DNA of 64,000 bases from Cudoniella acicularis (lineage: Eukaryota > Ascomycota > Leotiomycetes > Helotiales > Helotiaceae): the NCBI GenBank assembly GCA_013054445.1, contig JAAMPI010000050.1:18150-82149 (forward strand). Direction: 5' to 3'. The position numbers were made by a program, and so were the translations under genes. This document shows positions 8,950 through 58,273 of this stretch, in pieces. The notes under the pieces are model-generated. The model saw only the letters and a program-made list of their open reading frames with translations. It made no database searches and had not been told where the DNA came from. Position 1 is the first letter of the stretch. Every line of letters begins with the position of its first letter.

Positions 8950-10224
8950 ATGGCCTGCAGGGACGTTCACCGATACTATCGAATTTGCGGCCATACTACT
9001 AGATTCATCGAACATGACACAGACTGTCAGCATCCGGACTCTTCCATTCCAAGTGCCGAAGGAGAACGAAATTGCTCGCCTCCGCTGTCACTACTATACA
9101 CACCGGAATTCATAAATGATCGATGTGGAGAACCAAACTGCCGTGAAGATTTTGTATCTAATGAACATACCGAAGTCGAGGTCTCTAAATTCAGGACAAT
9201 AGTTCGTAACTTTGAGAAGAATCACGAAGAAGAGTTCAAGTAAAGGGAAAAAGAAGACGAGATAGAAGGTCTGAATAATTGGCTTAAATGGGTCTATGAC
9301 CTGCGAGTCTTGCAAATTAAAGCGATACAAGTCAGGCTACCTCACCCGCTTGAAATTGTGAGGATAGATTCTGATACTCCTCGCAGTGAGATACTCAGTG
9401 GATTTGTGGTAGAAACTGAAGATCCTCCAGATACCGATTGTCCTATGTGTTCTACCAGCCTCCACGATCAGCCTTTTGATGAATGGGGGTATCCGTCTAA
9501 CGTGAAAGGTGGTGGGATTGTTCGCGCTTTGTCATGCCATCCAGAATATATGATGCATATTGAATGTCTAGTCAAATGCATCTGGGAGAATGACCAGTGT
9601 CAAATATGCAGGAAAAAATGGAATTTTCTGTTTTTCAATGGAACCAAGCCCCGGTTATATAGGTGGATTCCTAATATGGGAAGAAATGGTAACCATGAAG
9701 TCCAGATCGATGGTTTTATCACACCGACTGAAAGCCTTTTGAGCAATCGTAGAAATCTCAAGCTAAGACTGTTTCAAAGAGATGATAGATGGGGAAAGCA
9801 TAACGACTGGAAGGCACTTAATGAAGAACGGATAAATCAAGAAGAGGTAGATATCCGAGAATTGTTTCATAGCGAAGAAGGACAAATATGGCTTAATCAC
9901 GCAGGACAACAAATAAACCTTCAAGAATTGGGGACCAGGGTTCGGGGCCCTCTAAATTAGCCTGGAGAACCGGCAGGTCCTGTTGAAGTACCCGGAGAAC
10001 AAATGCAAGTACAAATCAGTAACGCGTTACACGTTAACGAGGAGGCTGAAGAACGGCCGGAAAACCCGGAAGCCCCCCAAAAAGCCCCACCTCTTGTTCT
10101 CGAAGAGCATGATTCCGAATATAGGGAGAGCTACCAACAAGAAATTCATCGGGTGCCTACAGTCTATAGTGGGGCGTCTACAATTGTAGATATACATGTC
10201 GAAGATGATTCTCCGCATTTGTAG
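8950..10224 (+). pseudogene. RING-type zinc-finger gene with two in-frame stops
   Basis: One frame runs from ATG 8950 to TAG 10222-10224 (424 codons), interrupted only by TAA at 9241-9243 and TAG at 9958-9960. Coding character continues on both sides of each stop. An N-terminal Cys/His-rich part (MACRDVHRYYRICGH) starts the protein. A RING-like cluster CPMC ... CH-x5-H-x2-C ... CQIC lies at about residues 163-220, so the ancestral product was probably an E3-ligase-like protein. Both stops are one CpA-to-TpA change from Gln codons (CAA, CAG), the expected RIP outcome. If translated as is, a 97-residue N-terminal peptide would be made, and the RING would be lost. Stop readthrough cannot be excluded from sequence. 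Confidence 0.7.
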
Positions 10225-11183
10225 GCCCCTGATTGGCTGAGATGAAATGAGAATAGGAGAAAAAACTGACAAGAAAGAGCTTCTAAAATTTGAAGGATCA
10301 ACTAGATAGAATACAAGGAAAACAAATTGAAGACAGTCTTGCATTCATTATATAATTCTTGGGTACAACCCTCAAACGATGTGTGATTTCAATAGCCGCG
10401 CCAGAGCCGGCTTTGGTCGCTAATTTACAGCGAGCTAGCCCCCGAAATTAGCGAACACCCGCCTATTGATCAGTGACCTTTCGCTCTGGGCCGTTTCTCA
10501 ACGCTTCTAAATCAAATATATAGGACTCCCCCCCTCCCCAAAAAGCATATTCTACTTAAAAAAAAGCGTTTCCCAAAGCGTTAAATTGTCGCCTAGTTGT
10601 ATAGCTTGTGTTTAGTCTGCGTTCAGTGCTCAGTAGAAATAAATCCGTGCTAAAAGTCGAGTCTCATTTTTTAAAAGTTTTAAACTTCGATCTTTTACCA
10701 ATGATCTGGGCGACTTCAAAAAGTTTTGTTATTGCTAGAGAAATATTATCGAAATGTTGAGTAGTGTCTTCGCAGTGGGAAAAGGGGAGAGTCATGTGAC
10801 TCTTGGCATGAAACCCACCCACGGACTTTCGCATGGACTTTCGAGGCATTTAGATATCTTAATTGACAGCTGATAAGAAACCTTCGAGCTGCCGAAATTG
10901 TAACAAACAATGGTGTTCTCTTAGGTTTCCCTGAATTCAAGGCGCACTGCGGCGCTCGAATTCAGAGAGTAGTTTGGGTTTTGCAAGACTGGACCAAGCT
11001 CATAAGATAGGATTGAAGAGGAATTTGACACTGAGGCTAATCTTTGGTTTGTTCTAATTATTCCTGATGATTTTGTTCTACACAGCCTTAAATTGAGTCG
11101 AGTTCTGTTCCCATCCGTTGGTCTTCAAGAGCCAAAGATATTCGAGTATCTCTTGGACGAAATATTATGAGGGCTACGTAAAG

Positions 11184-11227
11184 AGGCTCCAATTAGGTTT
11201 CCCTGCATCTTGTAAGTGATTGTTATG
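11184..11227. repeat. 44-base direct repeat, copy 1
   Basis: Matches 11473-11516 at about 39 of 44 positions, beginning GAGGCTCCAAT and ending AAGTGATTGTTAT. The copies lie 289 bases apart in the same orientation. Confidence 0.6.
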
Positions 11228-11472
11228 TATCGGCGCCGCACACGCTGTTTAAACTTTGGCCTGACCGGGTACGGGAGGCCGTGGTGTTCACGAACTTTTG
11301 AGAGAACTGATAGGATTCCAAGCCCTATTTTCAGAAGCGTGGCCACAGCGAGGTCGCTTGAGCGACGACGATGAAGTTATTGATAGAAGGTGCAGGAACC
11401 CAGGCACAGGGGAGCTAGCTTATTTATAGGCTAAGCGAGATCCAATCCGACCAATAAAACAGCTCCATTTAC

Positions 11473-11516
11473 GAGGCTCCAATCATGTTACCCCGCATCT
11501 TGGAAGTGATTGTTAT
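11473..11516. repeat. 44-base direct repeat, copy 2
   Basis: Second copy of the repeat at 11184-11227. Part of a decayed duplication or of mobile-element ends; neither can be decided from two copies. Confidence 0.6.
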
Positions 11517-12605
11517 CCGCTGCACAAAGAAGTTGGAATTGTGTTGCATCACAGTTTCAGCTGAGGGCCTGTAGGATTCGTCAAAACCTGCCTCATCCAC
11601 TGGAAAATTAGCTCAAGCGCCACCACCCACACCACTATCATCGACCCCCGCGTCTTTTGTTTGTTAGTTTTATCATCCACGTAACGATTCAGGATAAGAG
11701 GGGATCAATATGCAAGAGATCGCTGATTAGGAACGCCTTTTCAATTGGGGTCGAAAAACTATTCGTTATGAATAATTTCGAGCCTCCTCTCAAGATTTAG
11801 GCTAAATTTAGAGAGGGCTTGCTACTGACATAAAACCTTTGCCTCATTGTAGGTCTAAACCCAATTGAGTAGTGACTCGTGTCGAGTGGAGGAAAACATA
11901 GAGCCTCATCATGTCGCATTTATATGAACGGCAATTGAGATGAATTTTATAACTAGCTTACCATTAATGCATGAAGTTCCAACTCTCCATTTATAATGCG
12001 ATTAATTTGAATGGATGAAGCCCCGATGACTGTGTTATCTACTTGAGTCCAATGTTCAGTCGAAATGCAGTGAAAAGAACTGCTGGAAGACAGTTTGACA
12101 GTGAAAGCGAGACTTCCACACCTTCTAACCTTGGCTGCAGTTCTGGCTAGAAGGAGCTTCCGGGAAAAGCAACTCCGCTTGCACACACACATGATCTACA
12201 GTTTACGGCCTTGGGGCCATAAACTTATGTCCTTTTTGCGCAGAGCCTCGCTGTGAAACTGTTTTGTTTTTGGTACCCTAGCGTCGTCTTCCTGGCTGCA
12301 TATGTGAACACAAATAAAATGGCGGGAAAAACGCCTCAAAAGCATAGTCAAACAGTTATCTTCCATATTGTGCTTCATCGAGGAGGCAATGTATGATGCA
12401 CATCCAGCACAGAATGCATGGGCACATGTTGCAAATATTTTATCTTCCTCCAGCTATAAGATAGCCTTGACCCTTGGGTTCTTGGAAATTACTTTTGGTT
12501 CCCTGCTTGTCTGCTGGGTTCATACTCCTTCCCCCGCACAAAAATTACCAACAGCCTTACTCAAAATTCGGCCCTCACCACATGCAGATCTTCCATTCTT
12601 CTAAC

Positions 12606-13600
12606 ATGGCCGATCATGAGCAAAAGTCCTTCGAACGGCAACAACGGAGAGTTCATCATGTCCCGTTGCCAAAATGGTTTGTCGGTGTTCGCATCGCGCA
12701 AATCGTACTTGCCATTCTATGTGCAGGTCTCGCAGCTTATGTCACCAAGAATCTTCCATGGCTGGAGACCAGCGATCTGATGGTTTTTACTGTACTTCGC
12801 CCTTTCGTTTTTCATATCATTCCAATTTCTGAGACAAGTGCGCTTCTTGAATCATAATTCTTGTGGCGAGTTGAAGTCAATACTTCCATAGAGAGAGTCT
12901 GGGAGATCACTGAATTTCCCAAGTTGTCTTCTATTGCAAGTAAATCCAAACGCATGAAGCATCTACGACTATTCGCTCTTCGCTGGCGATAAGTAGCTAA
13001 TATATTACATACAGGGCTTCTGCACCGCGGTCGCTATCTTATACTTTATCCTCACAACATTCTTCTTCCCCGCCCTATACATCTACTGGATTGTATTGCT
13101 TTTCGAAATTTTATTTCCCTTATTTTGGGCACCAGCATTCCTCGCACTCGCATTCGAAATTGCTATCGTGACAGAGGCAACTCATGTCGCCACTGAAGTC
13201 GAAGACGATATCACAGCGAAGTATCTTGGTCATGAGTTCTCAATCGACCTGTTCAAACATACAAAGCTTGCAGGAGATGCTGCCTGCGTCTTGGCTGCGA
13301 TACTTTTGTAAGAATAAGATGCCTCCGAAACTTTCAAGTTTTGTTCACTTCTAATGAGTAATTAGTATACTCTGCTGCATGAATTTCGTAACTTTCAGCC
13401 TCCGACTAAGGCGCTTTCGCAAAGACGGAGGGAAGTGCTTCAAAGCCAGGTACAAGGGCTCACCACAGACTGTTTACAACCCTGCAACTGGCGATATGGA
13501 GAAGCAGGTCCAAATGGGAACACAGCCGATGGAAGGTGGCATCAACGAATACCAAAAGAATGGTGTTATCTATACCGAGACTCCTGAACTCCAGATGTAG
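12606..13600 (+). CDS. MARVEL-like four-TM membrane protein
   Basis: Three exons: 12606-12791, 13015-13307 and 13366-13600. Intron 1 (223 nt) starts GTACTT and ends TACAG. Intron 2 (58 nt) starts GTAAGA, with CTAAT and ATTAG. Both junctions keep the frame and restore membrane segments; the product is 237 residues. Hydrophobic segments: residues about 26-46 (after PLPKWFVGVRIAQ), 63-83, 86-112 and 152-172. The basic patch LRLRRFRKDG follows the last segment, and the C-terminal tail is polar and cytosolic. This layout is that of fungal MARVEL-domain proteins, which sit in the plasma membrane or vesicles. No RIP stop is present. Intron 1 is long for this window, so its donor is the weakest part of the model. 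Confidence 0.75.
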
Positions 13601-14822
13601 GATTAGTTGGAATTTTGACGAACACCGTCTTGGGATGAGAGAATGGAACGGCCTTGGATTTTCAAAGCATCAATTTTGATCACGAATTCAACGTTTGGGA
13701 TACGCTTGACAGGGACAGTGGGGCTTCTTTTCTGAAGGACTTGTCAAACTGACATTAAAATTGGATCATCCTCTTGTGTTTCCTGGGTCACAAATTTCGA
13801 AATGGGGGTCAAATTCTGGTTTTTTTTTAAAGGAATAAAGAATTATGTCGCGACTTTAGGTCTGCTGAACCATTTTACCGACATGTTATAGCGTATAGTC
13901 GCTTCAGCTCAACGTGTGAGCCCCTGTAACTTTGCGAGTAATTGCGCAAAACTCTGCCTCGCTGCGCAGAAACAACAACCCGTATCTTTCGCAAACTTGA
14001 TCGAACAACGGCTTTATACCAAAAAATCTACGCGGACTCGCGCAGTTATTTTCGCAATATTTATCAAACAGGATGTTCGTGTGTTTAAGCAAGCCGCCCA
14101 GAAGTACAGGAACGAGTAAGCAAAGTCTCAGTGGTTCAGGGGTTGCTCGCTAATTTGAGTACTTTAGCGAGCTATCCCTTTCCAAAGCAAAACCCCTTCT
14201 CTTGCACTTTTTTACTATTTCCCTCATTTTACCGCATTACGCACAACACTTTAGAAGCAATCAGCTAAATGATCGAAAATATTGTGCGAAATGTCTAAAT
14301 GTCTTCACACTTTTGTGAGAGAGACTTCTCCGCGCCAGGGGTTCAGGTTCACCGTTCAGGGGATCAAATATGGTCATCTCATCTTGGCTTAGCAGTATGT
14401 CGAACAATTATCGCTACCTAGCATAATATTCACGGAGAAGGGCACTTTTTTCCTACCCTTCAATGTCTTCGTGCTTCTGATCACATAAAGCAGCTAGGCT
14501 CTCATTTCCTTAGCTTCATAACCAATCAAATCTCGCACTCCTTGATTCACTAAATGGCTCGGTAATATGTAGTGTAGTATTTTGATTGGTTGTTGCGTTC
14601 ATGGACTTGGTCGCCTTTTTGTTTTACTTTACATGCAAATTCCATATAACAAATTCCTTCCAAGTTAAATTTTCCACTGAACCTGCGGTCATGACCCGCT
14701 AGATCCTCGGATATTATTCTCATGTCATCTTGTTAGAGCAGCACCATGTTACTAATCTTCTTCCCCAAGCAGAGTCCGAAATCCGTCAGAAAAACAATCG
14801 TAGGGTGTGAACAACCTTCCGT
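13601..14822. other. intergenic
   Basis: 1.2 kb. At 14145-14172 is a hairpin GCTCGCTAA/TTAGCGAGC whose core is shared with the inverted repeat at 10417. No coding frame is supported. Confidence 0.45.
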
Positions 14823-15683: not shown

Positions 15684-17425
15684 TGTCGTTATTTTAGGCT
15701 GATGTGACGAGGAGGGATTGTTGAATGCTTAGCTGGTCCGAATTTGTCATAGGCAAAGGGAGGGAAGATGTTTAGAGTTTGACTTGAGATCGAGTATGCC
15801 AAGGACAAGGGTGTAGAGTTGTGAAGAGGGGTGTCCTTGGGGAAAGAAGAGAAAGCAAAATGTCTGCGAGAGTCCTATGGATACGAGAAAGACGCGTTGC
15901 TATGTGACTACGCTAGTAAGCGAAGTTGAGGCGGCCAAACAAAGAACGACTATAGACTAAATTTAACTTGGCATCCCTCCGTATAGTTTGAATCTTTAGC
16001 GTGCGAAGCAGGAATTTCCTTTCTCAAGGCTCCTGTATCAAATTTCGACCGAAGCCTCGCGAAATTCTCTGTACGCATAGGACATAAATTCCGGGCTAGA
16101 TATATTCTGAGCTTTTCCTTCAGCCTCGAATGACAATTTGTCCTTTTTTTTATGGAAAGGAGGACCCATATTCTCCCCCTCCCCCCTCATCTCTCGCTTA
16201 TTCACATCGACTTAAGCAGCGCTAGTGGCGTGCAGCGAATCCGTGCGCGCACTCAGTGCATTCAATGTAAGATCTTACTTAAGAAAGATAGTTTACTTTC
16301 AGTGTGGTGCTCGCTCTTCTTGTTTGAATTCTTTGCTAAGAAGAATGTTTAAAACGAAAGCGCCTATTGCGCATAACGCGTTGTGCACCAGAAGAGAGTG
16401 ATGCTCTGTGCACGCTATATTGTTGGTGAGAAGTGCCCTGTAATACAGGCACTCTAGCGCAAACCTCAATTGGTAGAAGCCTGTAGATCGCTATAATTTC
16501 ACGAGGACGCTTTTGTGGTTGCGCCACTCGTTAAACAAAACCCTAGTGGGTTATACTGTAATTAATATCAACCTACTACTTTTATATCTTACAGTTTACA
16601 CATAATTAATTGATCGCAGTATATTTTCAAATAAATTGTTGCTGTTGCAGCAATTGTGGTCTCTCGCCCCTGATTCTATTCACGGTGCTAAGCGAGAAGA
16701 GGGGTAATTATTGGAAAAAGGGACAGAATATAGATTTCCGAATTCTTAAAAAGCTTAGATTTCAGGAGATTATGCGCGTATTCAATAGTCGAGGGTAGGA
16801 GAAACACTCTCAAATCATGATGCATAAGTCCAAAAGAACTGTCGAGAATAGGCAAATTCCGTAGTCTTGTGGGTACCTAGGAAGTGGTAGGCGCGGGCCG
16901 ATTTCTTACCATATGGGATTGAATGAAGAATTTCTTATTTTTTTAAGGATGAGCGAATGGCGCGTTTTTTCGTCGGTTTTTGAGAAGAAGGGCAGGTGAC
17001 TCTTTGGTTGTGGGGATGTTTTGTGTGCAGGGTTTGATCCAGTCAAACCACCAGTCTTTAGTTGAAAGTGTGAAATCACTTTATTTTCGCAAATTGACCA
17101 CAAATTCATTTCGCAGCATATACGATTGCATGAAAAATGGGTAAGGGTTATTTAGTAACCTATTTTGTTATAATCTTTAACACGCTTTATGATGCGGATG
17201 TTTTGAACCGCTGTGACCGATTTTTCGTGTTGACCCCTACCAAGAGATTTGGCAGGGAAGTTTTGATGACATCTAAAGAAAATAAAGATTCTGCTTTAAA
17301 TAGGAAACCCAAGGAATTATAAGAGATCTCACTTCATTGAAGGAATTGCTTTTGGCTTTAAAATTAAAACCAGATCTAAGAGGTTATGTAAGAGCTTAAC
17401 ATTTATGATTTGTCGTACAAAAAGG
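15684..17425. other. intergenic
   Basis: 1.7 kb. Presumed promoter of the minus-strand 2EXR gene, then low-information sequence. A frame at 16336-16527 has no recognisable motif. Short AGTGGCG/CGCCACT motifs near 16223 and 16524 hint at a small mobile element but are too weak to call. Confidence 0.4.
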
Positions 17426-18900
17426 TCATGGCAATGCCCAATCAGAAAAGCTTCCCTGCTGGTCACCCATATCCCGTAAATCCTCGTCCCCGAAAAGCTC
17501 TTTAAGACTCTCAAAGTCCATCAGTGGCGTCATAGGTGTTCCGTCAGAGTAAGCCAAGATCTCGAGGTTGACTTCCGGAAGATACAAAATCGCCTTGTCC
17601 TCGGGTTCCCCAGCTTTACTCAGATAGAAAGCGACATTGTAATATTTTGGATTAATCGGGATTAACTACTGATAGTAGTGTTCTGATTGCTCTTGGTAAT
17701 CACGCGTCTTCTCCGCAATCATAACCACCTCAAATTCAATGCCTTTCAATCGCTCTAATACAAGCGGCTAGATATCCTTCTTAACTCGGCTTGCAAGATT
17801 GCGGTAGTGTGCTAGTTGAGCTCTTATTTCCCCGAGTGATCGCTTTTCGTCATCCCATATGTGGAAGTCGTTTGTGATGTTGAGATTGCAGAATTCCTGA
17901 CCTAAGAGTCTTACATTGATGAGAACGGTTGAAAGATACTTTTTCCTCTGACGGAATTCATAGTATCCAAGGACAGTGCTGAGAGTACGAAGTTGCGGAG
18001 CAGATGATGCTATGTTCAGGATGGTTGTAATTGGTGTATCTCCTGTATGCCCGGTATATTGGAACGCAATGTGATAGAACCGAGAAAGATCTAGCCGGCA
18101 TTCCGAATTTTCAAGAGCAGTCGCAATGGACCTTCCTATTAGCAAAGTGTCTATTTGAGGTGATTGCAATTTCAGGAACCTTCTCCCCACTCAAAGGAAG
18201 CTTAGAAGGGACATTCTCATCCAAGTACTTCGGGTCAAATTGAAGTGTGATAGTGAGAGGTTTGCATTCTTGCAAAAACGCGTCATAAGACCCTCTACAC
18301 GTCAAAATAAAGCGCCACTCGTCCGATTCTCTTCGATAGCCTCCATTCCAAAATTTCAGAGTGGGAGTCTGAAGGTGGGTGCTGATTTGCAATTGCATCT
18401 TTCGAGGATCTGGCAGTGCAAGCTTCCAGATCTTGAGTCTAAGCTCTGGGGGGTCAAATTTTTTCGTGGCTTTCGTCTGCTTCGAAAGGGGTTCAATGAC
18501 ACATTCCTCAGAAGCCAATACTGGAAGATTTCTTCTGTTGGTAGAAAAAGTCCCATTTTGAAGTAAGAACATAGCTTCTGTTGTTAAAAGCCAGTCATCT
18601 ACGCAAGGTCAGAAAAAGTTAAAGTAGTAGTGTGCACTATAAAATTTACTCACCAGGATTATAGATGAAGTCTTCGTTGTCACCGTATTCGTAAAAATCT
18701 ATCAGAAGTGTGATGTTTTGTAGTTTGTTGAGTTCAGATGCGTCTTCGCAAGATGTCACAAGACTCAAATCAGTGGGAACATGACTGTCTATACCCTCTT
18801 CCGAAGTTTCAAGACCCCATCGCTCTGCATCCGGGAGTCCAGGGTTTGGTTTCCACTCGAGGACCGAGTTAGTGTCCCACTGTTGATTCGAATCTGCCAT
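17426..18900 (-). pseudogene. 2EXR gene, spliced, with frameshift and two TAG stops
   Basis: Starts at ATG 18900 (MADSNQQWDTN). Exon 1 ends at 18654; a 55-nt intron (18653-18599, GTGAGT..GCGTAG) leads into DDWLLTTEAMF. The 2EXR signature KFDPPELRLKIWKLALPDPRK follows. Near 18111-18190 the frame must shift by one base to continue into PQIDTLLIGRS and LDLSRFYHIAFQYTG. That frame then meets TAG at 17770-17768 and TAG at 17668-17666 before the conserved C-terminal motif IPINPKYYNVAFYL and the final TGA 17428-17426. Both TAGs fit CAG changed by RIP. It is the best-preserved broken member of the cluster and shows the full ancestral structure. Confidence 0.75.
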
Positions 18901-23275: not shown

Positions 23276-23795
23276 TCAAAGCTTGTCGACTTCATCGAGC
23301 GTCTTATGGATATTAACCACATCAGACCTCATAAGTGTACCATCCGAGTATGTCCACATTGCTAAGTTAGGCTTAGGGAACAACACCCTAGCCAAGTCCC
23401 AGGGTGGTACTGGCATAAACGTAAAAAATGCAATATCCGAGTACTTTGGCTTAACAGGAACCAAATATTTCGGTTCAGTCCATCCACTGACTTTCGAGCA
23501 ATCTTCTCTTGTTACGCCCACTGTCACAGCTTTGAAGTCCACTCTACTGAAACGTTGTGAGACTAAAGGGGAAATTTTCTCCTTAATCTCACTAGCTCTG
23601 TCACAGAAGTGCACCTAGGTGTCTTTGTATATCCGAGCGTTCTCGTTGTCGTTATAGTCAGCTATTGATTTCGTTTGGTCGGAATAGTAAGGAGAACGCT
23701 TTGATATCAAGGTCTGCGAATTCCTTTCTAATTTGGTACAGTACGTTGGGGAATGTTTCTTCATTGAGGTCCTGAAATTCGTTTCGAAAAACTTC
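23276..23795 (-). pseudogene. 2EXR-family C-terminal fragment
   Basis: Two minus-strand pieces in different frames: 23795-23660 (EETFPNVLYQIRKEF) and, after an in-frame TAG just above 23614 (ACC TAG GTG, probably former CAG), 23614-23276. The latter contains VPVKPKYSDIAFF and YSDGTLMRSD, matching IPINPKYYNVAFYL and YSDGTPMTP of the 17.4 kb paralogue. The N-terminal half and the 2EXR motif are missing; the break abuts the start of a plus-strand acidic ORF at 23800. Confidence 0.55.
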
Positions 23796-23799
23796 GAGT

Positions 23800-24333
23800 A
23801 TGGATGAGGAATGGCGGAAGGACCTGCCCAATGGAATGATAGCGGACGTCATGAATATTCTGCTGAAACACATGCAAGAATTGCCCGAGGGTCTGAGGGT
23901 TCCTACGAGAGGACTTGGTGGATATATGGTCAATGTTATGGAGAATGTGGATAAGGATGTTAATGATGATCAAGCCTTCGCACTGCCAAATAGGGCCGAA
24001 AAGCAGGACGAGGCTTCCAATCCTGGAGACGCAGTGGGATGCAACGAGAAAGATGAAGAAAAGCAGACCGAGAATGCAAATGAGCAGCTGAAAGAGGAGA
24101 GTGACAAAAAGGAAGACGTGGAGATGATCAAGAATGACAAAGAAGAGATCAAGGAGGTTGGTAATGAGAATGGAGAAGGCAAGGAGATTTTCGAGTTGGC
24201 GATGTAGGAGGTTCTGTCTCAAAACGCTAAGGATGGCAATGGCAAGAATGACGAAAAGAGAGAAGATCTAAAGGAGGGCGAAGGAGACTTGGTGGGGGGT
24301 AAACAAGATAACGGAATTAAGCAAAGTCACTGA
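23800..24333 (+). pseudogene. Lys/Glu-rich protein ORF with one in-frame TAG
   Basis: ATG 23800 opens a 177-codon frame to TGA 24331-24333, with one interruption, TAG at 24205-24207 (ELAM, stop, EVLSQN). The stop is one CpA change from CAG. The first 60 residues are mixed (LPEGLRVPTRGLGGYMVNVM). The remainder is strongly charged (EKDEEKQTENANEQLKEESD). The bias to G/C in third positions supports real coding. No family was recognised. The protein may be a truncated but functional 135-residue form. Confidence 0.4.
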
Positions 24334-28270: not shown

Positions 28271-28833
28271 TTACAAGTCCTTGATGAAGTTGTCGAAAAA
28301 AGGCGCACGCATCGAGCACGCCAGCTTTTGCACAGCAAGTGATTTCAGTGCGTCCACATCAGATGCAAATGTGTAATCCCAAAACTCCTGGAATGGACGC
28401 TCCTCCTTCGAATTACTCAGCCACTGAATAAGCAGCTTCATCACCTCGTTCTAAAACTTTGGCATCATGAGTTCGGCCCCCAATACCCACAATTGTGCGA
28501 ATTCAACTGGAGTGAATAGTGCAACATGAAATCCGAGATTGACCTCGCCGGTATATAGCCAGGAAGCCACCAATCCGAAACCCTCCCTGTCAACATCTTT
28601 AAGTCTTTTGGTATAGATCCGACCATGAGCCCATCGAATCTCAGACAGCTCATTCTTGAAGAATTGCGAGTGCCGACAAAGTAGGTCTTTATGAACTATG
28701 AATGGCTCAGGATTTGGCTCGACCACCACTGCAAAGACAACTTTGGGTGTGCTAATAGATGATATTGTTAGTTAATGCTTTTAAAATACTCCCCGGGGTT
28801 GGAAATCTACTCAAAATCCTCAAATTGACGCAT
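28271..28833 (-). pseudogene. BTB/POZ domain gene with one TAG
   Basis: Exon 1 (28833-28811) encodes MRQFEDF plus part of a codon. A 59-nt intron (GTAGAT, branch ACTAAC, ATTAG) leads to exon 2 with TPKVVFAVVVE and the BTB core FIVHKDLLCRHSQFFKNEL, then LVASWLYTGEV. TAG at 28453-28451 follows MMPKF. The same frame continues with NEVMKLLIQWL and further coding-like residues to TAA 28273-28271. BTB proteins of this fungal type have Q/NEVM-like residues at that place, so TAG is probably former CAG. Full length would be about 167 residues. The BTB fold itself lies before the stop and could still be made. Confidence 0.7.
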
Positions 28834-32655: not shown

Positions 32656-32659
32656 CGAT

Positions 32660-32887
32660 CAGTTAAGTTATAATCAACGGGCAAAATCTGAAGTAGTTAG
32701 TAACGTTTGCATTTATGAGCTTTTGCACTGCATCACTGAGATTTTCAGACATAAGAACGATTCCCCTTTCCGTCTGAAATGAACTATTATACAAGATACC
32801 GTCACAGTTCATGATACAAGACTCTGACGAGCTGAGGATTGTATTTACTATTATTATTGCTCTCAATCTGAAGTTGCATATTGAGAG
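32660..32887 (+). pseudogene. Rearranged fragment of the 54-56 kb gene family
   Basis: Plus-strand reading gives AKSEVVSNVCIYELLHCITEI, matching AKSEATTNACIYELLRCVTEI of the gene at 55.6-56.4 kb. After TVTVH it jumps directly to the part corresponding to MQDSDELRIVFTI (about 55.2 kb), so the roughly 500 bases between are deleted. It abuts the C-terminal end of the GH3 remnant on the opposite strand. Confidence 0.6.
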
Positions 32888-34257
32888 AAGTTTGGGTTTT
32901 TTAAGTGGGAGCGGTTCGTTCGCATTTTTGACAAGAACGTGGCCTTCAATGGCGCCATCAAGAAGTATGGGTTTGGATGCAGGATCTCGCGCGTTGACAA
33001 TCGCATGCGGGATTGTATAATCGAGTGCCATTCCAACTCCTGGCTCTAGGAAGCCCTCCTGAGTACGTCAGTCAGTAATTCTTCGTTTATAGATAGCCTA
33101 CCTTACATCTTGTCACATCTGATACCATGCAGCTATAATTCGAGTTGCCATGTCTGTGACTCGAGATTCAGCCAAGCTGCCATTATTAACCGAGATTGTG
33201 AGATTGCCTCCCGATTCGCCCCAGTAGACCGACTCTGGCATTACAACATCATGGCCCGCTTCCGCGGATGATAGCCCGGTATCTAAATCAAGTCAGCGAG
33301 GCACAAGAAATAATTCTCCCAACTAAAGCTCTGACGTTGTGCATCCCAGTCACTAATAACAAATCCTTCAAATCCAAGCTCCGTCTCTAACAGTCCGTTC
33401 AAAGTCTTGCTGTTTTGACAGGCATACGAATTGTTGATTCAATTATATAAGCACATGATGTAGCCATCCCCGGCATGAGCCGATCTACGAACGGCCAGAG
33501 ATACAATTCATGGATGGTTTTGTCGTCTACGTTTGATGAAACGGCTGAAACATTCCCACTTGGATTGCAGTTTGTTTCTTGTTCGTTCGTAACGTAATGT
33601 TTTACTGATGTGTTGACCTCTAAGATATGCTAAAAAGAGATAAACTATGTCTAATGCCAGGAACACATAACTTACGATCGTTGCTAGTCCCTTCCTAGTT
33701 TCTGCCTCCTATATCGACTCTGCCTAGCGGACCGACCACAGGTCCTGACGCCACATTAACACCCTTCATCTTGAACTCGGCACCTATGTGAAGAGCTCGC
33801 TGGTAAGCCAAATTGCGATTCAATAAAGCCCTAACATAAAGACCACTCGGCCAACTATTTACGAAATCGGTAGCTCGCAGTCCGTTTCCAGCATCGGAAA
33901 GACAGAGACCGGGCCAGCCTAGCCTTGGAACAGTTCTAGTTATACCTGAACATCCACTGTCGGGGGTATATCCAACGGTAATATTGGCTTTCTCCTTCAG
34001 GGTCATTTGAGAAACGAGAGCCACGGCTTTGGAATAAACTGCAGCCTATACACCCAGACCAGACATAGGTGCTGGGCATGAAATCAGTTGCAGATCTTCG
34101 GTGAACTAGTAGATTCTTACGTGAAGGGTATACTAGAGGAGATAGTCCATAGAAATATGTATCATCCGTAATATTCGCCTGGGCAGAGGCGCCATTCTGG
34201 GTGAAGGCGAGTGAGGAGTGCAAGAGGGGTTAGGTGCCATAACTTGACGGAGGCCAT
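32888..34257 (-). pseudogene. GH3 beta-glucosidase remnant
   Basis: Reads from ATG 34257 with a secretory-type start (MASVKLWHLTPLALL). After a frameshift it shows pieces in family order: [20 protein letters not shown] with [33 protein letters not shown], the nucleophile block [20 protein letters not shown], and ARDPASKPILLDGAIEGHVL ending at KKPKLLSI. The nucleophile Asp is kept, but several frameshifts, stops and lost segments separate the pieces, and the C-terminal third is absent. GH3 enzymes release glucose from beta-linked oligosaccharides outside the cell. The 3' side was replaced by the gene fragment at 32660-32887. Confidence 0.7.
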
Positions 34258-34510
34258 GATTGATGATCGGATGTCTTGCGGCGCTAAGAGCTGATTGGTT
34301 TTTAATACAACTCCAATAGTTGTATATCGGACAACCACCGATCCTATTCCCGCTGCATCGTGATCCTGTCCACTCCCCTGTCTTATGGCTCCAGCCAGTT
34401 TGGCTCTGACATATTTCTAGACCCCACCTGATTTTGTATGAGCGAAGTCACGTGTACGATGGTAATCTAGACATCTTACTCGAGGCTTGGAGGTTAGGGG
34501 ATGATAGCGG

Positions 34511-34990: not shown

Positions 34991-36570
34991 CTTGAAGACA
35001 GATGGGCGAGAGATTTGAAAGACCCGTGATTGAGATAGAATTTTTAAGCGTCCGAATGAGGTACTGTTTGGGGTGATGCGGATGACTTGAAGTCGAGGTA
35101 CTCTAAGGCAAGAAGTTCTTCTTATCTCTTACGGTACGAGATAGCGGTGGGATATTCCGCCGTTTGACCCGAGATCGGCGATCGACACCGCTCATTCCAA
35201 AGCTCCTTGCCCAATCATCGCACATACTTTCAAATCCCAGGCAACTTCAAAAACACTTGACCTTGGCTATATTGTAACTAATGTACATCTGGTAAAAGAT
35301 CCATCTATTAATTCAGTTACAATTTTTGCGCATGCTAGGACTAGATTATGACATCGAAAGATGTACTATACCGAGATATATGCACTTCACTTGGTTACTC
35401 TGTGCCCAGAGGAAGCTTACGGCTGCCGAATTCCTTGCGGTAGCGTCAGTTACTTTCGCAAGGTATTTATGGCCACATATCCAAGGATCAATATTATGAT
35501 CATGCCACCAGTATCGCAACCCAAGCCATTTCCAATTCTCTACTGACACTCGGAGAAGAAGGAGTCGCGCTAGAGGATTTGCTAGTCGCTGTCCACTTCT
35601 CCAGGGCCATTGCTCCATCCCTTCTTCTCATTAATGCCTTAGCCATCCACAAATAGTCTTAAGACCCTCGGGAATCTCAAAAGGGCCATTTACCTCGAGG
35701 TTTGAACAAAGGATGAGTTTTGGGATCAGCGACCGAGACTGCTCAATAACGATCCCGATATTTCGTGGTAGTTTGCTTGGTATTATATAGCTATTTGAAG
35801 CAGCTAGAAAAACTTATTGAGTCACTACGACACTTCTGTCATTGTCTCGGCCATCCACCTTTTTGATGTTACGTTCAGATTCAGGCCCAGGTTCTGACGC
35901 AGAATTCCCGTTTGAAAATAGATCTTGCCTCACCTGTAAGTATCATCGCCGAGCATTCGCCAGAACCGCATATTGCAGATTGTGGGGTGGGTGGATAAAT
36001 GGAGTAGTAGCATGGAAAGCTATTCGTCGTCATTTGAGCTACTCTAGTGTCCAGTTTTGCTACCTTAGGAGTTCCGGAGCTTTTCTTTCTTGTTTGGCAG
36101 CTATAAATTTCGTCCTGAGCAGTGCTACCTGCGTAGCAGATGGACTATGGCCTGCTGGAGCCCTATATGGACGAGGTCCGTCCCTAGTGCAGAGCATAAG
36201 TTCCTAATCCGGCTGCGTCCAGAGCGACGAGCTGCTGTAGTTGGCACCGGACATCCTTACACACCTAGTCGAAAAGGAAATTTCTACAAGGCATAGTCGA
36301 AGCAGCATATTTGTGTAACCAAGATACCTCCTAATAATAATATAATATTGGATTTTGGGACTAGTAGAAGGTGCGAAGGCCCAATATAACTATCCAAACT
36401 CAACACCGGCAAGACCATGTCCAACATCAGGTACTTCAAGCAACACACACCTTTCCATACCGTCATGGCGGGGTGGGTGTTATAAAAACCTTACATAACG
36501 AGGTTGTAAAAGTTGTAGCTCTTCCTCAGCCGTTCGAGTTGGCGGCAAAGTCTCAACCTCATACGATTTA
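34991..36570. other. degraded sequence, no identified gene
   Basis: Several frames of 60-120 codons on both strands (for example 35346-35618 minus and 35842-36207 plus) give no recognisable family. Probably decayed genes or repeats. Confidence 0.35.
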
Positions 36571-36985
36571 GCCAACTTACAAGCTAAGAAATCCTGCGCT
36601 GCTCCTGGTACAAACACTTCCCGTCTTGTGTCATCCAGCAATCTTCTGTCCACTCCCATGTTTTTGTCCCGATGGGGCCTTTGTATGTCATCCTTACGAA
36701 AGACAAAGATCGGGAGCCTTCGAGATTACATATCACAGAGTCCTCGCCCGCTAGATATTCCTTTAGAGATTTCAAGAAAGTCACTATAGCATCTGGTGAA
36801 ATAGACTAGGCGCCTTCGATACCAGCACCCGCAAAGTAGTTTAAGAGCTGTTGTGTCTCTTGCCTAATGCTAGTACCCCATTCTACATGACTTGTGTATT
36901 GTACACCACGTTGAGGTGTACCTTCGTCATCTTGCCCATTCTCTATTGGAGAAGGAAGGGGTTACGGATCGATCATATTAGCGTG
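36571..36985 (-). pseudogene. Small unknown gene fragment with TAA and TAG in frame
   Basis: A single minus-strand frame begins at an ATG near 36980 (MIDP, TAA, PLPSPIENGQDDEGTPQRG). It continues through HVEWGTSIRQETQQLLNYF, meets TAG before SISPDAIVTFLKSLKEYLAG, and ends SFVRMTYKGPIGTKTWEW to TAG near 36574. The two internal stops fit former CAA and CAG. Product unknown; composition is soluble and acidic. Confidence 0.45.
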
Positions 36986-37579: not shown

Positions 37580-38390
37580 TTAGATCTTTGAACCTACGTA
37601 AGATAGAATAGCAAGAGATATTGCAAATGGAATGTAACATAAAATTGCTAGTAAGCAGATCCCACCCTTTATTATTTTATTTATAACAAAGCGTTTTATA
37701 AATAAACAGAAGAATAATGTCGCGGTAAAAACAAAAGCAAATCCTAAGCCAAAAACGAAAGGGCCTTTAATGTTTGCAGATGTAATCTTCGCCGTAATCC
37801 TCTCTAGATATCGGAATGGCTAGAATTGGCCATTAGTAATAGTTTAAATATCCTCAGAAAATTGTGTGACAGCCTCTGGTATCATATCAGAGACATTTAA
37901 CGGCAAACTAGTGCAGTCGGTATGATCGACAAATCCAACACAGAATTGACTTATACCAAGCGAAACATTCCTGGGAAGTAATGCTTCAATTGCGGTTTCA
38001 GCAGCGCTTGCAACCGCAGCGGTGGCTGTCGCAACCAAGCTTGCTCCCTCCGCAGTAGCTGTTGCAATAATGCTTGCTCCCTCGGCAGTGGCTGTCGCAA
38101 TCAGGCGTCTGAAGGGACCGGGAATGCCGCGTTGCTTGAGATGTACATCGGGGATATTGAGGATATCACTTATGTTGAACTAATATTATGAGATTATTAG
38201 CTAAATAATGAGAAAAGGAGTGTATGTTCTGCACATTTAAAGTTAAAGTTGCAATACCTGCTCGTTAGGTTTTTTCTTGGACGAGTAATAGAATTACTAG
38301 TACTACACAACAGAGAGTGACAGAAGACAAGGCAACGAGGGCCCCGATTTGGAGCCCACTTTTCTTTTTTTTAAGCATTTGACGTATTTG
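37580..38390 (-). pseudogene. Fungal membrane protein (SUR7/PalI-like layout) with in-frame stops
   Basis: Pieces on the minus strand: a hydrophobic helix GALVALSSVTLCCVVLVILL near 38300, an intron ending ATATTAG at about 38185, then FNISDILNIPDVHLKQRGIPG. A three-unit repeat of 11 residues (IATATAEGAS+) follows, then an extracellular-type segment with FCVGFVDHTDCTSLPLNVS. After TAA 37846-37844 and TAG 37822-37820 the same frame continues with ITAKITSANIKG and two hydrophobic segments to TAA 37582-37580. Both stops fit former CAA/CAG. The order (TM, loop with Cys pair, further TMs) resembles SUR7/PalI proteins of the plasma membrane; that family name is tentative. Confidence 0.5.
37998..38096 (-). 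repeat. 33-bp coding tandem repeat, three copies
   Basis: Three units of about 33 bases encode IATATAEGAS(I/L) and a more divergent third copy (VATATAAVAS). The units are in frame inside the membrane-protein remnant. Confidence 0.6.
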
Positions 38391-43180: not shown

Positions 43181-43189
43181 ATCACTACT

Positions 43190-45188: not shown

Positions 45189-46424
45189 ATGAATACCAGC
45201 CCTCTCGTTGCCTCTGTGCACAGCGGCTGTTCTTGGCTAGACGAGCACATCGAGTCATGTGTTAAAAAGTACTCTCCAGATGTTGTTTTCGTAAAAGACT
45301 TAGAATGTTTTGTTGATAACGAAGCTGCTCTTTACCAAATTTGTGATAGACAACGTTGTAACACAAACGGATTTATCGTTCCATTAAAGAATCCCAACTT
45401 CTCGTTAATTAACGTATATCCCAACGACGATGCGTTAACAAGGAAAAATTGCTTGTCCAGGATAATCGAGTATTAGGTAGCTAAGCGGCCGGAATCTATA
45501 TTGAAAAGCCACGTCCCGATTACTGTTCAGCTCGATTTAGACTATGCAGAGTATATTGATTACTCACTTGCCGAGGCAGACTCCTTTGAACTATGTCAGT
45601 CAATAGAGGCTAATGGTAATAAAGAGCCTTCTACACGAGATTGGTGGATCCTTAAACCTGCTATGACCGATTACGGATATGGAATCCGGATATTCAGTAC
45701 CATGACAGATTTAGTAGGATGTCTTGAGTCACTTGAGTCGGAGGGGCGAAAGTCTCCGTCTATTGCCGAAGATCGAATTCCTTCCTTACTACTACAAGAA
45801 TTTGTTGCGCAAAGGTATTTGACTTCTATACTATTACTAAACGGGAAAAAGTTCCATGTTCGAGCTTACGTCTTGGCTATCGGTCGGGTTCAAGTCTTTG
45901 TCTATCGAGAATTGCTTGCACTTATAACGTCAGAAGTATACCGCCAACCGTGGGATAACACTACCTTAAGATCGTCACTGACCAACTCTTCTTTACAACC
46001 GGAAGATATACAAAGTAGTTCTGCTCGAAACTTTTGGTCATCCATCCTAGATGATATTTTGCCCGGAGATTAGAAGGAGGCGGTTTTTCAACAAATCTGT
46101 CAGACTTCTGCGGAGGTCTTCCGAGCAGCCTCGCAAACGGCGACTGAGGGGCTTGTCTTTTTACCAGGCTGCTTTGAACTATTTGCCCTAGACTTTCTCA
46201 TTGACATTAAAGGGTCGGTATAGTTGCTTGAAGTGAATGGCGGACCAGCCATCCCCAAAGAAGGGGAAGCAGGGTTATTAGCACTTGGGTTGTTTGAATC
46301 AATCACTAGTATTACTATGCGGAAACTTACACAGGTAAAGGAAAAGCCTTCAGCAGAGCAGCGAATGATTGAAGTGCTAAACTCTGAACTCAAGCGAAGT
46401 AGTATTAGGGAAATTGTGTACTAA
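45189..46424 (+). pseudogene. Tubulin-tyrosine-ligase-like (TTL/PBY1 type) gene with three TAG stops
   Basis: One frame of 412 codons from ATG 45189 to TAA 46422-46424 is broken only by TAG at 45474-45476, 46071-46073 and 46221-46223. ATP-grasp features of the TTL family are readable: WWILKPAMTDYGYGIRIF, LLQEFVAQRYL, KKFHVRAYVLAIG and, after the last stop, LLEVNGGPAIP. All three stops fit former CAG. TTL-like proteins ligate amino acids to tubulin or, in the yeast Pby1 case, are linked to mRNA-decay bodies. No frameshift is needed across 1.2 kb, so inactivation looks recent. Confidence 0.75.
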
Positions 46425-46755
46425 GGTGCACTAAAAAGAAAAAAGACATGGCTAAACATTTATCATTTAAATTTTAAAAGATCAATAGCGAAGCAGATTC
46501 TTTAGGGTGTCGTGAACAGGATCCAAGCTTTACTATTGTTCCCTTTGGAAGCATGTACATACGCTGTGTGAGTAAGTGCTAGGGCTACAGTCTAGCTCCA
46601 TCAGTTTCTTATACAAAGTTAATCAGCAATGCCAAGACAGTGTATCAATATATTTTCTATAGGAAGCAATCTCCATTAGCTGCTGATAGACGGAAACTAA
46701 GGTTAAGGCTGGTGCCAATTAGAATCGCGGTACAGATCGTTCTTTAGAAGAGTTT
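46425..46755. other. intergenic
   Basis: Short spacer between convergent genes; nothing seen. Confidence 0.4.
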
Positions 46756-47424
46756 TTATGCCACGTCTGCGCCGCGCAAGCAGGCCTGCGGGGCGAACTG
46801 GGCTGCTGCCCTCAACCGAAACCCCTCTAAAATCACCGCCACCTGAGACTCATTCGTCCATTTAATCTCAATTCTCTTTCCATCCCTCACGACTTCTCCT
46901 TTTCTACATTCCTCCTCTGTAACCCAATGAAACGCTTGATGCTCCTCTTCATCCAAAATGACTTCCACCCCCTCAATCTCCACTTCAAAGCTAAACTTAC
47001 ACCATACAGTTCCCTCTTCCACCCACTCATAACTCTCCCCCACCTGCCTTAGCACCTCAGTCGCTATCAAACCACTTTCTTCCCACAATTCCCTGACAGC
47101 GCCGGCAAGAATCGATTCATCGGGGTCGCAGGACCCGCCTGGGATTTCCCAGAGATTAGGCACGTAATCTGTAGCAGAGCGTTGGACGATGAGTACATGG
47201 GTTGAGTTAGAAGGAGAGAAGACCAGCGTGGCAGCGACTATGTGATGTTTTGAGGGGTGAGAGTTTAAGTAGTCTTTGACTTGAACATTGAAGGGGAAGA
47301 GGGTAGGGGAGGCGGTGAAGGATAAGAGTGCTCCTGGTGGGGGTTTTGGTGCCATAGTAATTCGTTTGGAAGTAGTAGAAGTGGAATGGCTCAACTTTGT
47401 GAATGTTTGATCGGTGCCAAACAT
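46756..47424 (-). CDS. Nudix hydrolase, intact
   Basis: 222 residues from ATG 47424 (an alternative ATG gives MAPKPPPGALL at residue 24). The Nudix box GX5EX7REUXEEXGU is complete at about 97-119, with Arg111, Glu112, Glu115 and Glu116 as Mg-binding and catalytic residues, preceded by LWEIPGG. Nudix enzymes hydrolyse nucleoside diphosphates linked to another moiety; the substrate class cannot be told from the box. No intron needed. It is undamaged between a TTL pseudogene and a GT90 gene with stops. Confidence 0.85.
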   Translation of the reverse strand: MFGTDQTFTKLSHSTSTTSKRITMAPKPPPGALLSFTASPTLFPFNVQVKDYLNSHPSKHHIVAATLVFSPSNSTHVLIVQRSATDYVPNLWEIPGGSCDPDESILAGAVRELWEESGLIATEVLRQVGESYEWVEEGTVWCKFSFEVEIEGVEVILDEEEHQAFHWVTEEECRKGEVVRDGKRIEIKWTNESQVAVILEGFRLRAAAQFAPQACLRGADVA

Positions 47425-47722
47425 CCGAGCTCGTGATCCGGTGGGGCTCTCCGCCTCAAGGTGGGGCGGAGAGCCTTGACTAGACAGGGGTGCTTATCCA
47501 TTCTCGACCCCGTTTATTATATTATAAAAGCCTGGGGGACCTAATGCCTTTCCGAATTCAGAATTTCTTGGTTGATTAGACGTCTTCGTCCAAACAAAAA
47601 TAGGCAGCCGGAAAGATGCTTAGTTAAAGGGGTGTTTGGAACATCTTAGAACGCATGCAGTCAATTGCTATTACTGTCAACGACCGGAACTCACTTAATG
47701 CTTTTATTGTCCTATCGCTCAA

Positions 47723-50433
47723 CTAAACTCGATCGTCTTGTAACATCCGGGCATACTCTAGTAAAATCCTTAACAGCGCCGCACTCAGATCTATTGGCCG
47801 GAGAATCCGTCTAGCCCAGTCGCGACTTTCCTTTGCAATTCTACTAGCAATCTTTTGCCCTTCTGGGTCCTTTAATAAATATCTCGCGGTCTCAGGAAGT
47901 TCTTCCATCCCTAGACTAATAGGCACATAATGCACCCAAGGGATCAGTCTGTCCTCATGCCACTCCCTGAAAAGATTTTGCATAAAAACCAGGCAGTTTG
48001 ACTTGAGAAATCGATAGTATCGACCGCTAAAGCTGTTCCCATCCAGATTGTACAGAACTTTATATTTGTATGAGTCCTTAAGTGTATCCTTGGGGGATTC
48101 TTGGAAGTATTCTCTCTGCTCGGAACAGGCTTTTCCATCACATTGAAAAAAATTCGAAAAGTTGACTTTGAATAGGCCGCCCATCTGACCGATAGAACTT
48201 TGGTATGTCATTCATTGTCTTCCGAGTTCAGTTTGATTCATGAGTTGGACCATTTGCGTAGGCGAGTTGGTGAAGTTCACAAATCGTTGCCGGTGTCCAT
48301 GTCGCCACGACCCATCATGCCATTGTCCTCCAGTTCCGCTGCCCCGCCAGTAGACATTGTCCCTCTTTTCTTCCCATGAAGAATCCCATGACTCGTTGTA
48401 TTCGGCAATGTCGCCTTGGAAGTAGTACGAGCTTGGAATCAGGATATCTTGGAAGCACGAGAGTTTTGCCGTAGAAGCAATGGGTACTCTTTGATGGGTA
48501 AACACGAAAGTACCTGGTGAAGATAAGAGCCCATGCTGATTGGCTATCCAAGCTGGATATTGGCAGATATCTCGTGCCTCAGTGATATTGGAAATGAAAG
48601 GGATGTCTGTATTGCTTTGATGTCTAGGATAAGATGGAGATCGTGCTGAAGAGTCAGGAGGGCACGACAACGCAATAGTCTCAAAGGTGTTTTGGTGGCC
48701 TAAGTCCGTGAATGAAAATGGTGTGGTTTCGTTAGCCAAAGCAGAAAGGTCTTGGAGATCTGAAGATTTTGAGGGTTGTGGTGGATTTAGCAAATCATGA
48801 GGAACAACAACTCTCGACTCGTCCAGGTCATTCAGAAGCATTCTCATGTCAGGAAGGAACTCCAGAACCGGTTTTAGAAGTTGGACAAGCTGTTCGTGTT
48901 GAAAATTACTATTATACACCGTCGCTTCATGGTCTTTAATCTCCAAGACTCCTAAGCGAGTAGAACTGGGTGCCATAGATGCGGCTACGTCGATATAATC
49001 TCTCAATACCTTCGGTGTGACGTGCCAATATGGGTCTGGGGAATGAGTCATAAAGTCGTATTCATCCACGAGCGTAATGTTATTCGCATTCATAAAATGG
49101 TACCATTTATCGAAACCTGGGGGAGGCTGACGCCCGTATCTCTGCTCGTATTGGGAGATTGCACTGGCCAAGGAACGAGACTGGCGATTCTGCATTGTCG
49201 CAAACTTTACCTGTGCCTCTTCTGCTAAGCGGTAAATAAGATGGTGTTGAAGACTGTGTTGTACACTATGGAAATGCAGACTGGGATATTCATAGAGCAG
49301 GAATATGCGAAAGGGAAATGCCACGAATGCCAGGATAATAAGTCTTGCTATACGATTACGTGAAGCGACGATGGTAATCAGATAGAGTGTAGTTACTGCT
49401 GCTAGGACGACTAGAAAGCTTCGACGTCCATAAGTGTGAAGATTGATTGCATTCGTGCATACTGCAAATGTTGTTGCTAGGGGAATAACCACGAGCTTGG
49501 ACCCAGATGCCTTTGTGGTGTTTAGGTGAGTGTCATCTACAAGTAGCATGGATTTGCAACTCACCAGATATAATACCGCCATCTATCGGATTGCTTTTAA
49601 AATTATTGCTACGCCAACATTTATCAATGATGGTATGCCCTGCCACCAGAGAAGAGCAATTGGGCCAGTGATGGCTATAATACGCGGCCCAATGTATGTA
49701 GCTGTTCGCAATATTCGATGTATAAAGATCGGAGCTGCTGATTCCGACTCTGAAACTCCACGATGGAGTACAGAATACAGCCCGACTTGAGAGAACAGCC
49801 AGCAGAATTGAAGATTGAAATTGTGGAAGAGCTGGTCGTCCGCCAGAATAAGGACAGCAGTGGCTGCTAGGAGACCAAGCCATAGAGTAGTTCTTTTGTT
49901 GATATTGTACCAAATAGATTGATGCTCTTCGACTTTTGGGAGTGGCGTATTAGAGACTCTGATGCGTTGTATTATAAACACGATGAAACTTAGTAGCGGT
50001 GCCTATATATCTAATTAGTGCCGAAGATAATATACATGATTTAAGATGACACGTTTACTAGAAACAGAGATTTTCTAAAGAAAATAATGTAATCATAGTC
50101 AAGGAAACAGTATCAGGGTAAAGGGGTACTCACCACGAACCAATTAACTACATTAATTGAGTTACTTAAACATAGCAATGTAGCACACAACGCGAAAGCA
50201 TCAAGGTTTGAGGAATTTAGGGCTTTTGACTGTGAATGTTCCTCCTTCGAGAAGAAGTAGAAGTATATAGCTCCGCATACAAGAATCAAGACCCAGCAGA
50301 AAATTTCTGATAGGATCTCCTGCTGGGGAGGAAGTACGTTCCGCAGGTACAGTGTCGAAACCAATACCAGCACCGTCGCGATAGATGCATAGCCAAGATT
50401 ATCTGACGTGCCTGGAGCACCGTACGGTAACAT
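47723..50433 (-). pseudogene. CAP10-like glycosyltransferase (GT90) with two in-frame stops
   Basis: Exons 50433-50134, 50002-49565 and 49510-47723, joined by introns beginning GTGAGT, give 841 codons. The N-terminal third has several hydrophobic segments (multi-spanning); a short Golgi-type linker follows, then the catalytic GT90/CAP10 domain: WYHFMNANNITLVDEYDF, YWRGSGTGGQWHDGSWRHGH, KYKVLYNLDGNSFSGRYYR and EWHEDRLIPWVHYVPISL. TAG at 49585-49583 (R-stop-M) fits CAG. TGA at 48214-48212 (Q-stop-M) cannot come from CpA change of Gln and may be CGA to TGA. The family transfers xylose or related sugars in the secretory pathway. The whole catalytic domain is otherwise uninterrupted. Confidence 0.75.
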
Positions 50434-58179: not shown

Positions 58180-58273
58180 CTATCCCCTATTAGTTATAGC
58201 GTAGTTCTACCTACTTAAATGACTATATCGCCACGTCACTGTTTAGGCAAAGTCCTTTCTTCCCTCCTTCGTC

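What the first reader, a model, noticed from the sequence alone, without database searches (positions are those of the whole stretch)
8950..49585. Many otherwise readable genes are broken only by TAA/TAG where CAA/CAG (or TGG) is expected
Seen directly: RING gene (TAA 9241, TAG 9958), 2EXR (TAG 17770, 17668), acidic ORF (TAG 24205), BTB gene (TAG 28453), unknown gene at 36.6-37.0 kb (TAA and TAG), membrane gene (TAA 37846, TAG 37822), C2H2 (TAG 39386, 39185), TTL (TAG 45474, 46071, 46221) and GT90 (TAG 49585). The frames continue with coding character after each stop. TGA is rare among these lesions. Established: RIP changes CpA to TpA, which makes exactly these stops. What is odd is the very low density in single genes from unrelated families, unlike the saturated retroelement. 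Alternatives: weak RIP leaking from repeats, recent RIP of segmental duplicates, or programmed readthrough. Intact genes here end at TAA/TAG/TGA, which argues against a changed code.
Basis: partly seen in the sequence, partly recalled or inferred. Interest (0 to 1): 0.75.

Follow-up and report, generated by a model that had tools for sequence, protein, structure and literature searches.

The report
Scattered broken genes, mostly ordinary decay
Several genes in this stretch of a cup fungus's genome carry premature stop codons; they look like ordinary gene decay, with one gene lightly hit by the fungus's own repeat-mutating defence, rather than a special way of reading stop codons.

Summary
The stops are real: all 14 listed codons are there, and none of them lies in a consensus-type, frame-preserving intron. 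The window is from Cudoniella acicularis. Relatives have Trp at all three TTL TAGs and at GT90's TAG and an unlisted GT90 TGA. Distant paralogues suggest Gln at the BTB TAG and one C2H2 TAG, but Thr at the other C2H2 TAG. The remaining sites could not be read.

This genome shows strong CpA-biased RIP. Only TTL carries a RIP-like fingerprint: 10 of 19 lineage-specific residue changes are CpA-type, and its index exceeds all 57 long open segments examined. GT90 (2 of 26) and six other broken genes look like intact ones by these measures. DNA searches found no duplicate of the broken genes beyond one short match. The window has no excess of in-frame interruptions (29 seen, 37.4 expected), and TGA is common in family stops elsewhere.

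Best reading: a background of sporadic pseudogenes plus one weakly RIPped gene. A-to-I correction of UAG to Trp is disfavoured but not excluded for TTL and GT90.

The parts
45189..46424 (+). TTL (tubulin-tyrosine ligase family) gene with in-frame TAG at 45474, 46071 and 46221; light RIP-like load
   Evidence: Pfam PF03133; Trp at each TAG in relatives; 19 derived changes, 10 CpA-type; index above 57 of 57 segments; ends checked
47723..50002 (-). GT90 (glycosyltransferase family 90) gene with TAG at 49585 and TGA at 48214; the TAG at 47725 is probably its natural end
   Evidence: Pfam PF05686; Trp at both sites in relatives; no CpA excess
28274..28771 (-). BTB-domain gene with TAG at 28453; the same frame has a further TAA at 28273 and reads on
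   Evidence: Pfam PF00651; Gln in 4 of 5 fetched paralogues; TAA
38796..39584 (-). C2H2 zinc-finger gene with TAG at 39386 and 39185
   Evidence: Pfam C2H2 families; one paralogue shows Gln and Thr
8935..10206 (+). So-called RING gene, TAA 9241 and TAG 9958; no Pfam family found; public model splices both stops out
17425..18190 (-). Second part of the so-called 2EXR gene, TAG 17770 and 17668; not tested against relatives
   Evidence: index like intact segments
23776..24330 (+). Acidic open frame, TAG 24205; not tested against relatives
37700..38130 (-). So-called membrane gene, TAA 37846 and TAG 37822; not tested against relatives
36560..36963 (-). Unknown frame with TAA 36964 upstream and TAG 36808 and 36586; not tested against relatives
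32878..34293 (.). Duplicated stretch whose copy on contig C217 is RIP-mutated: positive control for RIP in this genome
58001..64000 (.). RIP-saturated AT-rich block; a reverse-transcriptase domain at 61006-61485 has 4 TAG and 5 TAA

Best explanation
The stops mark sporadic pseudogenes in a RIP-competent Helotiales genome, not one process. Shown: the TTL gene carries an unsaturated RIP-like load of stops and missense changes. Inferred: it was hit lightly by RIP, either while a duplicate existed that has since been lost, or by spill-over. Shown: GT90 has two nonsense codons where relatives have Trp, and an otherwise normal spectrum of change. Inferred: GT90 and, by analogy, the BTB, C2H2 and other genes were inactivated by single point changes, mostly G:C to A:T, which most easily turn Trp and Gln codons into stops; the low density reflects few hits. 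Comparable interruptions occur elsewhere in the genome.
For: TTL: 13 of 19 derived changes are C-to-T or G-to-A, 10 in CpA, against 5 and 2 of 26 in GT90 (Fisher P 0.002 and 0.001). With the stricter 75% rule used for TTL, GT90 gives 5 and 1 of 15 (P 0.08 and 0.008). TTL changed more than its sister, 19 v 7 (P 0.014), or 16 v 7 without stops (P 0.047). TTL index 0.08, highest of 57 segments -0.12. RIP shown in the genome. No local excess of interruptions. TGA is 19 of 45 stops in 37 of 150 2EXR hits and 4 of 14 in 12 of 150 HET hits, against 3 of 442 in reverse transcriptases.
Against: All five stops in the two genes with good relatives are at Trp, probability 0.004 if Trp and Gln codons are equally exposed; 5 of 7 with BTB and one C2H2 site, 0.03, the Thr site left out. 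No surviving DNA duplicate of TTL was found. TTL stays below the formal RIP thresholds. TAG is over-represented in the window at some thresholds. Family stop counts include stops in introns and only the best 150 hits.
Confidence: 0.7

Rival explanations
1. Region-wide weak RIP hit all the broken genes: leak from repeats, a large duplication later lost, or the DIM-2 route reported to act on single-copy DNA flanked by repeats.
For: RIP is strong here. RIP-positive tiles lie at 41001-42000 and 58001-64000. An inverted pair of copies at 32.3-32.9 and 55.2-56.3 kb flanks the membrane, C2H2, TTL and GT90 genes. Leak and the DIM-2 route are described in PMC7296669, PMC7882544 and PMC12543289 (passages).
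Against: Seven of the eight broken genes indexed show no elevated RIP index; GT90 shows no CpA excess and has a TGA.
Confidence: 0.12
2. A-to-I RNA editing corrects UAG to UGG (Trp) in TTL and GT90, so their TAGs are tolerated.
For: Four of 4 TAGs in TTL and GT90 stand where relatives have Trp. Fungal editing prefers U before A and corrects UAG (PMC11156358, passages). In the predicted folds the A lies in a hairpin loop at 4 of 7 TAGs.
Against: Among 500 other TAGs of the window 193 (39%) lie in such loops, so 4 of 7 is no clear excess, and none of the 7 folds more stably than shuffles. BTB and one C2H2 site look like Gln, GT90 has a TGA, and TTL has C-to-T missense changes. Editing was not found in Botrytis apothecia, and the Sclerotinia Ame1 did not replace the Fusarium one (PMC11156358, PMC7306014, PMC11087585, passages).
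Confidence: 0.05
3. Ordinary mutation alone, without RIP even in TTL.
For: No DNA duplicate of TTL; the other broken genes show no RIP signal.
Against: TTL's CpA share and index.
Confidence: 0.1
4. Some stops lie in real introns (most plausible for RING).
For: The public model P0141 removes both RING stops with introns 9240-9386 and 9847-9960.
Against: Donors are not consensus; 0 of 15 sites have a strict intron. For TTL the model's intron 45414-45476 removes a stretch kept by 14 of 14 covering relatives.
Confidence: 0.03

Closest known systems
Repeat-induced point mutation (RIP) of genes in Pezizomycotina
   Same: CpA-biased C-to-T changes giving TAA/TAG and missense changes in TTL; RIP shown in duplicates and retroelements of this genome
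   Different: TTL is far from saturated and no duplicate survives; the other broken genes lack the signature
Premature stop correction by A-to-I mRNA editing (Fusarium graminearum PUK1 and others)
   Same: In-frame TAG where Trp is expected; a predicted intron hides the stop, as first happened with PUK1 (PMC7306014, passage)
   Different: No RNA evidence; Gln sites and a TGA also occur; class in which editing has not been found
Ordinary unitary pseudogenes and decaying members of expanded fungal families
   Same: Few lesions, no RIP index, normal spectrum (GT90); many interrupted 2EXR members elsewhere
   Different: All five stops in TTL and GT90 are at Trp codons

Membership tests
RIP-mutated sequence (TTL gene) | Excess of C-to-T in CpA | tested here: met
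   10 of 19 derived residue changes, v 2 of 26 in GT90; protein-level inference, no orthologue DNA
RIP-mutated sequence (TTL gene) | RIP indices beyond the usual thresholds | tested here: inconclusive
   TpA/ApT 1.05, substrate 0.97, composite 0.08: above 57 of 57 segments but below the thresholds I applied (1.1, 0.75)
RIP-mutated sequence (TTL gene) | A repeated copy in the genome | tested here: not met
   No DNA match; protein paralogue about 39% identical. A lost copy cannot be tested
RIP-mutated sequence (GT90, C2H2, BTB, 2EXR, RING, acidic, membrane genes) | Elevated RIP index or CpA excess | tested here: not met
   Indices -0.5 to -1.28; GT90 2 of 26 CpA; no orthologue spectrum for the other six
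RIP-competent genome | CpA-biased mutation of duplicates | tested here: met
   128 of 169 changes in the C217 copy; 439 TAA/TAG v 3 TGA in reverse transcriptases
RIP-competent genome | RID methyltransferase | tested here: inconclusive
   Three contigs match the DNA methylase family, matched parts without stops; which is RID was not determined
A-to-I premature stop correction | TAG at ancestral Trp | tested here: inconclusive
   4 of 4 TAGs in TTL and GT90; BTB and C2H2 look like Gln, Gln and Thr
A-to-I premature stop correction | Edited A in a hairpin loop | tested here: inconclusive
   4 of 7 v 193 of 500 control TAGs; folds no more stable than shuffles
A-to-I premature stop correction | A-to-G in RNA of sexual tissue | not testable with these tools
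   No RNA data
Programmed stop readthrough | CARYYA or CTA after the stop (motifs recalled) | tested here: not met
   0 of 15
Intron-borne stop | Consensus donor, strong branch point and acceptor around the stop, frame kept | tested here: not met
   0 of 15 strict; weaker candidates at 5

The most novel reading that the evidence does not exclude
UAG inside certain Cudoniella genes (TTL, GT90) is turned back to Trp in the RNA: the first premature-stop correction by A-to-I editing in Leotiomycetes, possibly of separate origin from that in Sordariomycetes.
Probability: 0.05. Interest if true: 0.8.

Novelty: new member of a known kind. Interest (0 to 1): 0.25.

Why it matters
At least one public gene model (TTL) splices around a real premature stop, and a second (RING) may do so, so pseudogenes of such fungi can be counted as genes. 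TTL is an example of an unsaturated RIP-like load in a gene with no duplicate found. The Trp bias at the stops that could be read gives an exact and cheap RNA test for editing in a class where it has not been found.

Tried and rejected
A codon-usage score across stops had too little power and was dropped. A strand asymmetry in TTL (8 of 10 CpA-type changes on one strand) is not significant once opportunities are counted (P 0.14). A solved-structure search with the BTB gene gave four weak hits (E 0.3); the two alignments shown end before the stop. Eighteen of the 37 interrupted 2EXR domains (those picked carry TAG or TAA; two also TGA) were fetched: three have a stop at the conserved Trp column (TAG, TAG, TGA), and close pairs add one Trp and one Gln, but most stops lie in variable columns, so I offer no rate. 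TTL and GT90 were first polarised with different agreement rules (75% and 60%); one search gives the common rule. One of GT90's two stops (49585) fell outside the columns used.

The control is 180 kb from 18 loci on long contigs, not a random sample, and includes RIP-positive tiles (31 of 190 one-kb tiles of L009-L027). The 57 segments are open stretches of at least 250 codons, not verified genes, and include part of GT90. Kinase hits were listed but not counted, because stops in introns could not be told apart. Whether Ame1 occurs in this genome was not searched.
Full report
What the window is. The window is bases 18150-82149 of an 82,149-base contig in a 53.2-Mb genome. A protein search with the TTL gene returned a hypothetical protein of Cudoniella acicularis (G7Y89_g1323) from a contig of exactly that length, 100% identical where it aligns. 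The species is in Helotiales, Leotiomycetes.

Are the stops there? Yes: all 14 exact coordinates hold the stated codon, and frames read on both sides. A strict frame-preserving intron explains 0 of 15 sites; 5 have weaker candidates. The public proteins skip stops: G7Y89_g1323 uses a 63-base intron that removes a stretch kept by 14 of 14 covering relatives and ends at the second TAG; G7Y89_g1312 (RING) uses introns of 147 and 114 bases with non-consensus donors. RING has no relatives in the search, so I cannot say whether its introns are real.

What stood at the stops? TTL: Trp at all three TAGs (14 of 14, 13 of 14 and 13 of 13 covering rows; the exception, P0012, is out of frame there). GT90: Trp at the TAG in 2 of 2 and at the unlisted TGA in 9 of 9. 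BTB: Gln in 4 of 5 fetched paralogues of 29-33% identity. C2H2: Gln at one TAG and Thr at the other in the single fetched paralogue, read by eye. So 6 of 7 readable TAGs fit one CpA-to-TpA step; the Thr site and the TGA do not. All five stops of TTL and GT90 are at Trp: probability 0.004 if Trp and Gln codons are equally exposed, and 0.03 for 5 of 7 when BTB and one C2H2 site are added and the Thr site left out. The plain explanation does not predict this bias. I chose these two genes because they looked conserved.

Is RIP present? Yes. The copy of window 32878-34293 on contig C217 has 169 changes in the RIP direction, 128 in CpA, against 27 (3 in CpA) the other way and 25 transversions. In reverse-transcriptase domains, 61 of 66 hits have stops: 242 TAA, 197 TAG, 3 TGA. 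Three contigs match the DNA methylase family, with no stops in the matched parts; which is RID was not determined.

Did RIP hit the single genes? TTL probably, and lightly. Polarised against a sister and nine further relatives, 19 residues changed in the Cudoniella line: 13 by C-to-T or G-to-A, 10 of these in CpA, including the three stops; the sister changed at 7. GT90 gave 26 changes, 5 of that type and 2 in CpA, with 18 in its sister. CpA share: P 0.001, or 0.017 without stops; with one agreement rule for both genes 10 of 19 v 1 of 15, P 0.008, and without stops P 0.04, while the C-to-T share as a whole falls to P 0.08. TTL's composite index is 0.08; the highest of 57 long open segments is -0.12; seven other broken genes lie from -0.5 to -1.28. 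DNA searches of window 8801-28700 and 30101-50100 found one match inside a listed gene, 139 bases at 73% in the membrane gene; bases 28701-30100 were not searched, and the tool skips simple and very common words. TTL's protein paralogue elsewhere is about 39% identical and has no stop in its matched parts.

Is the window special? Hardly. In the first 57.5 kb, 29 stops have at least 60 open codons on both sides, against 37.4 expected from 180 kb of other loci; at 80 and 100 codons the window has slightly more than expected (11 v 8.3, 5 v 4.5). Shuffled sequence gives 7.7 at 60. Many of these will be introns and gene ends, which I did not sort. TAG is over-represented at 60 and 70 codons (P 0.03, 0.05) but not clearly at 50, 80 or 100. 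In 2EXR, 37 of the 150 scored hits have stops: 17 TAG, 9 TAA, 19 TGA; in HET, 12 of 150: 7, 3 and 4. Both differ sharply from the reverse transcriptases (P 5e-19, 2e-5), so stops in these families are mostly not of the RIP kind; some are in introns.

Editing and readthrough. Fungal A-to-I editing prefers U before A and corrects UAG (PMC11156358, passages). That fits the four TAGs of TTL and GT90, but RIP on the other strand gives the same context. The A lies in a hairpin loop at 4 of 7 TAGs, against 193 of 500 control TAGs, and none of the 7 folds more stably than shuffles: no clear signal either way. Against editing: Gln-like sites, a TGA, TAA stops, C-to-T missense changes in TTL, and reports that editing was not found in Botrytis apothecia and that the Sclerotinia Ame1 could not replace that of Fusarium (PMC11156358, PMC7306014, PMC11087585, passages). 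A search for RNA editing, A-to-I and Leotiomycetes listed five papers; I read passages of two, and neither reports editing in that class. The readthrough motifs I know follow 0 of 15 stops.

Conclusion. The most likely account is sporadic pseudogenes plus one gene with a light RIP-like load. The Trp bias leaves a small chance of correction in the RNA, which an RNA-seq experiment would settle.

Noticed in passing
window 45414-45476; 9240-9386; 9847-9960: Introns of the public gene models that remove in-frame stops (G7Y89_g1323 and G7Y89_g1312); the TTL one removes conserved coding sequence.
   Followed up: partly
window 32382-32813 and 55736-56169: Inverted duplicate pair with 55 transitions and 7 transversions in 429 positions; 46 of the 55 leave T/A in the 32-kb copy, yet only 13 of 38 with known context are CpA, so this is not classic RIP.
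   Followed up: partly
window 32878-34293 and contig C217:11303-12765 (L029): The C217 copy is heavily RIP-mutated while the window copy is nearly spared, an unusual asymmetry.
   Followed up: partly
window 31522-31728: A palindrome of about 207 bases, 87% self-complementary.
   Followed up: no
window 30274-30445: A repeat of about 172 bases with 14 matching places on other contigs, perhaps a small mobile element.
   Followed up: no
L048 (contig C286:13595-14195): The nearest C2H2 paralogue is itself broken by a TAG and a change of frame.
   Followed up: no
   Followed up: no
protein P0012: This TTL relative runs out of frame in its last third, so the gene may be decaying in other fungi too, or the record has an error.
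   Followed up: no
contig C1283:11080-11550, left of the window: A protein-kinase match with one TAG inside.
   Followed up: no
genome-wide: A paper reports that no functional seven-transmembrane ste2 pheromone-receptor gene could be annotated in C. acicularis (PMC10569646, passage).
   Followed up: no
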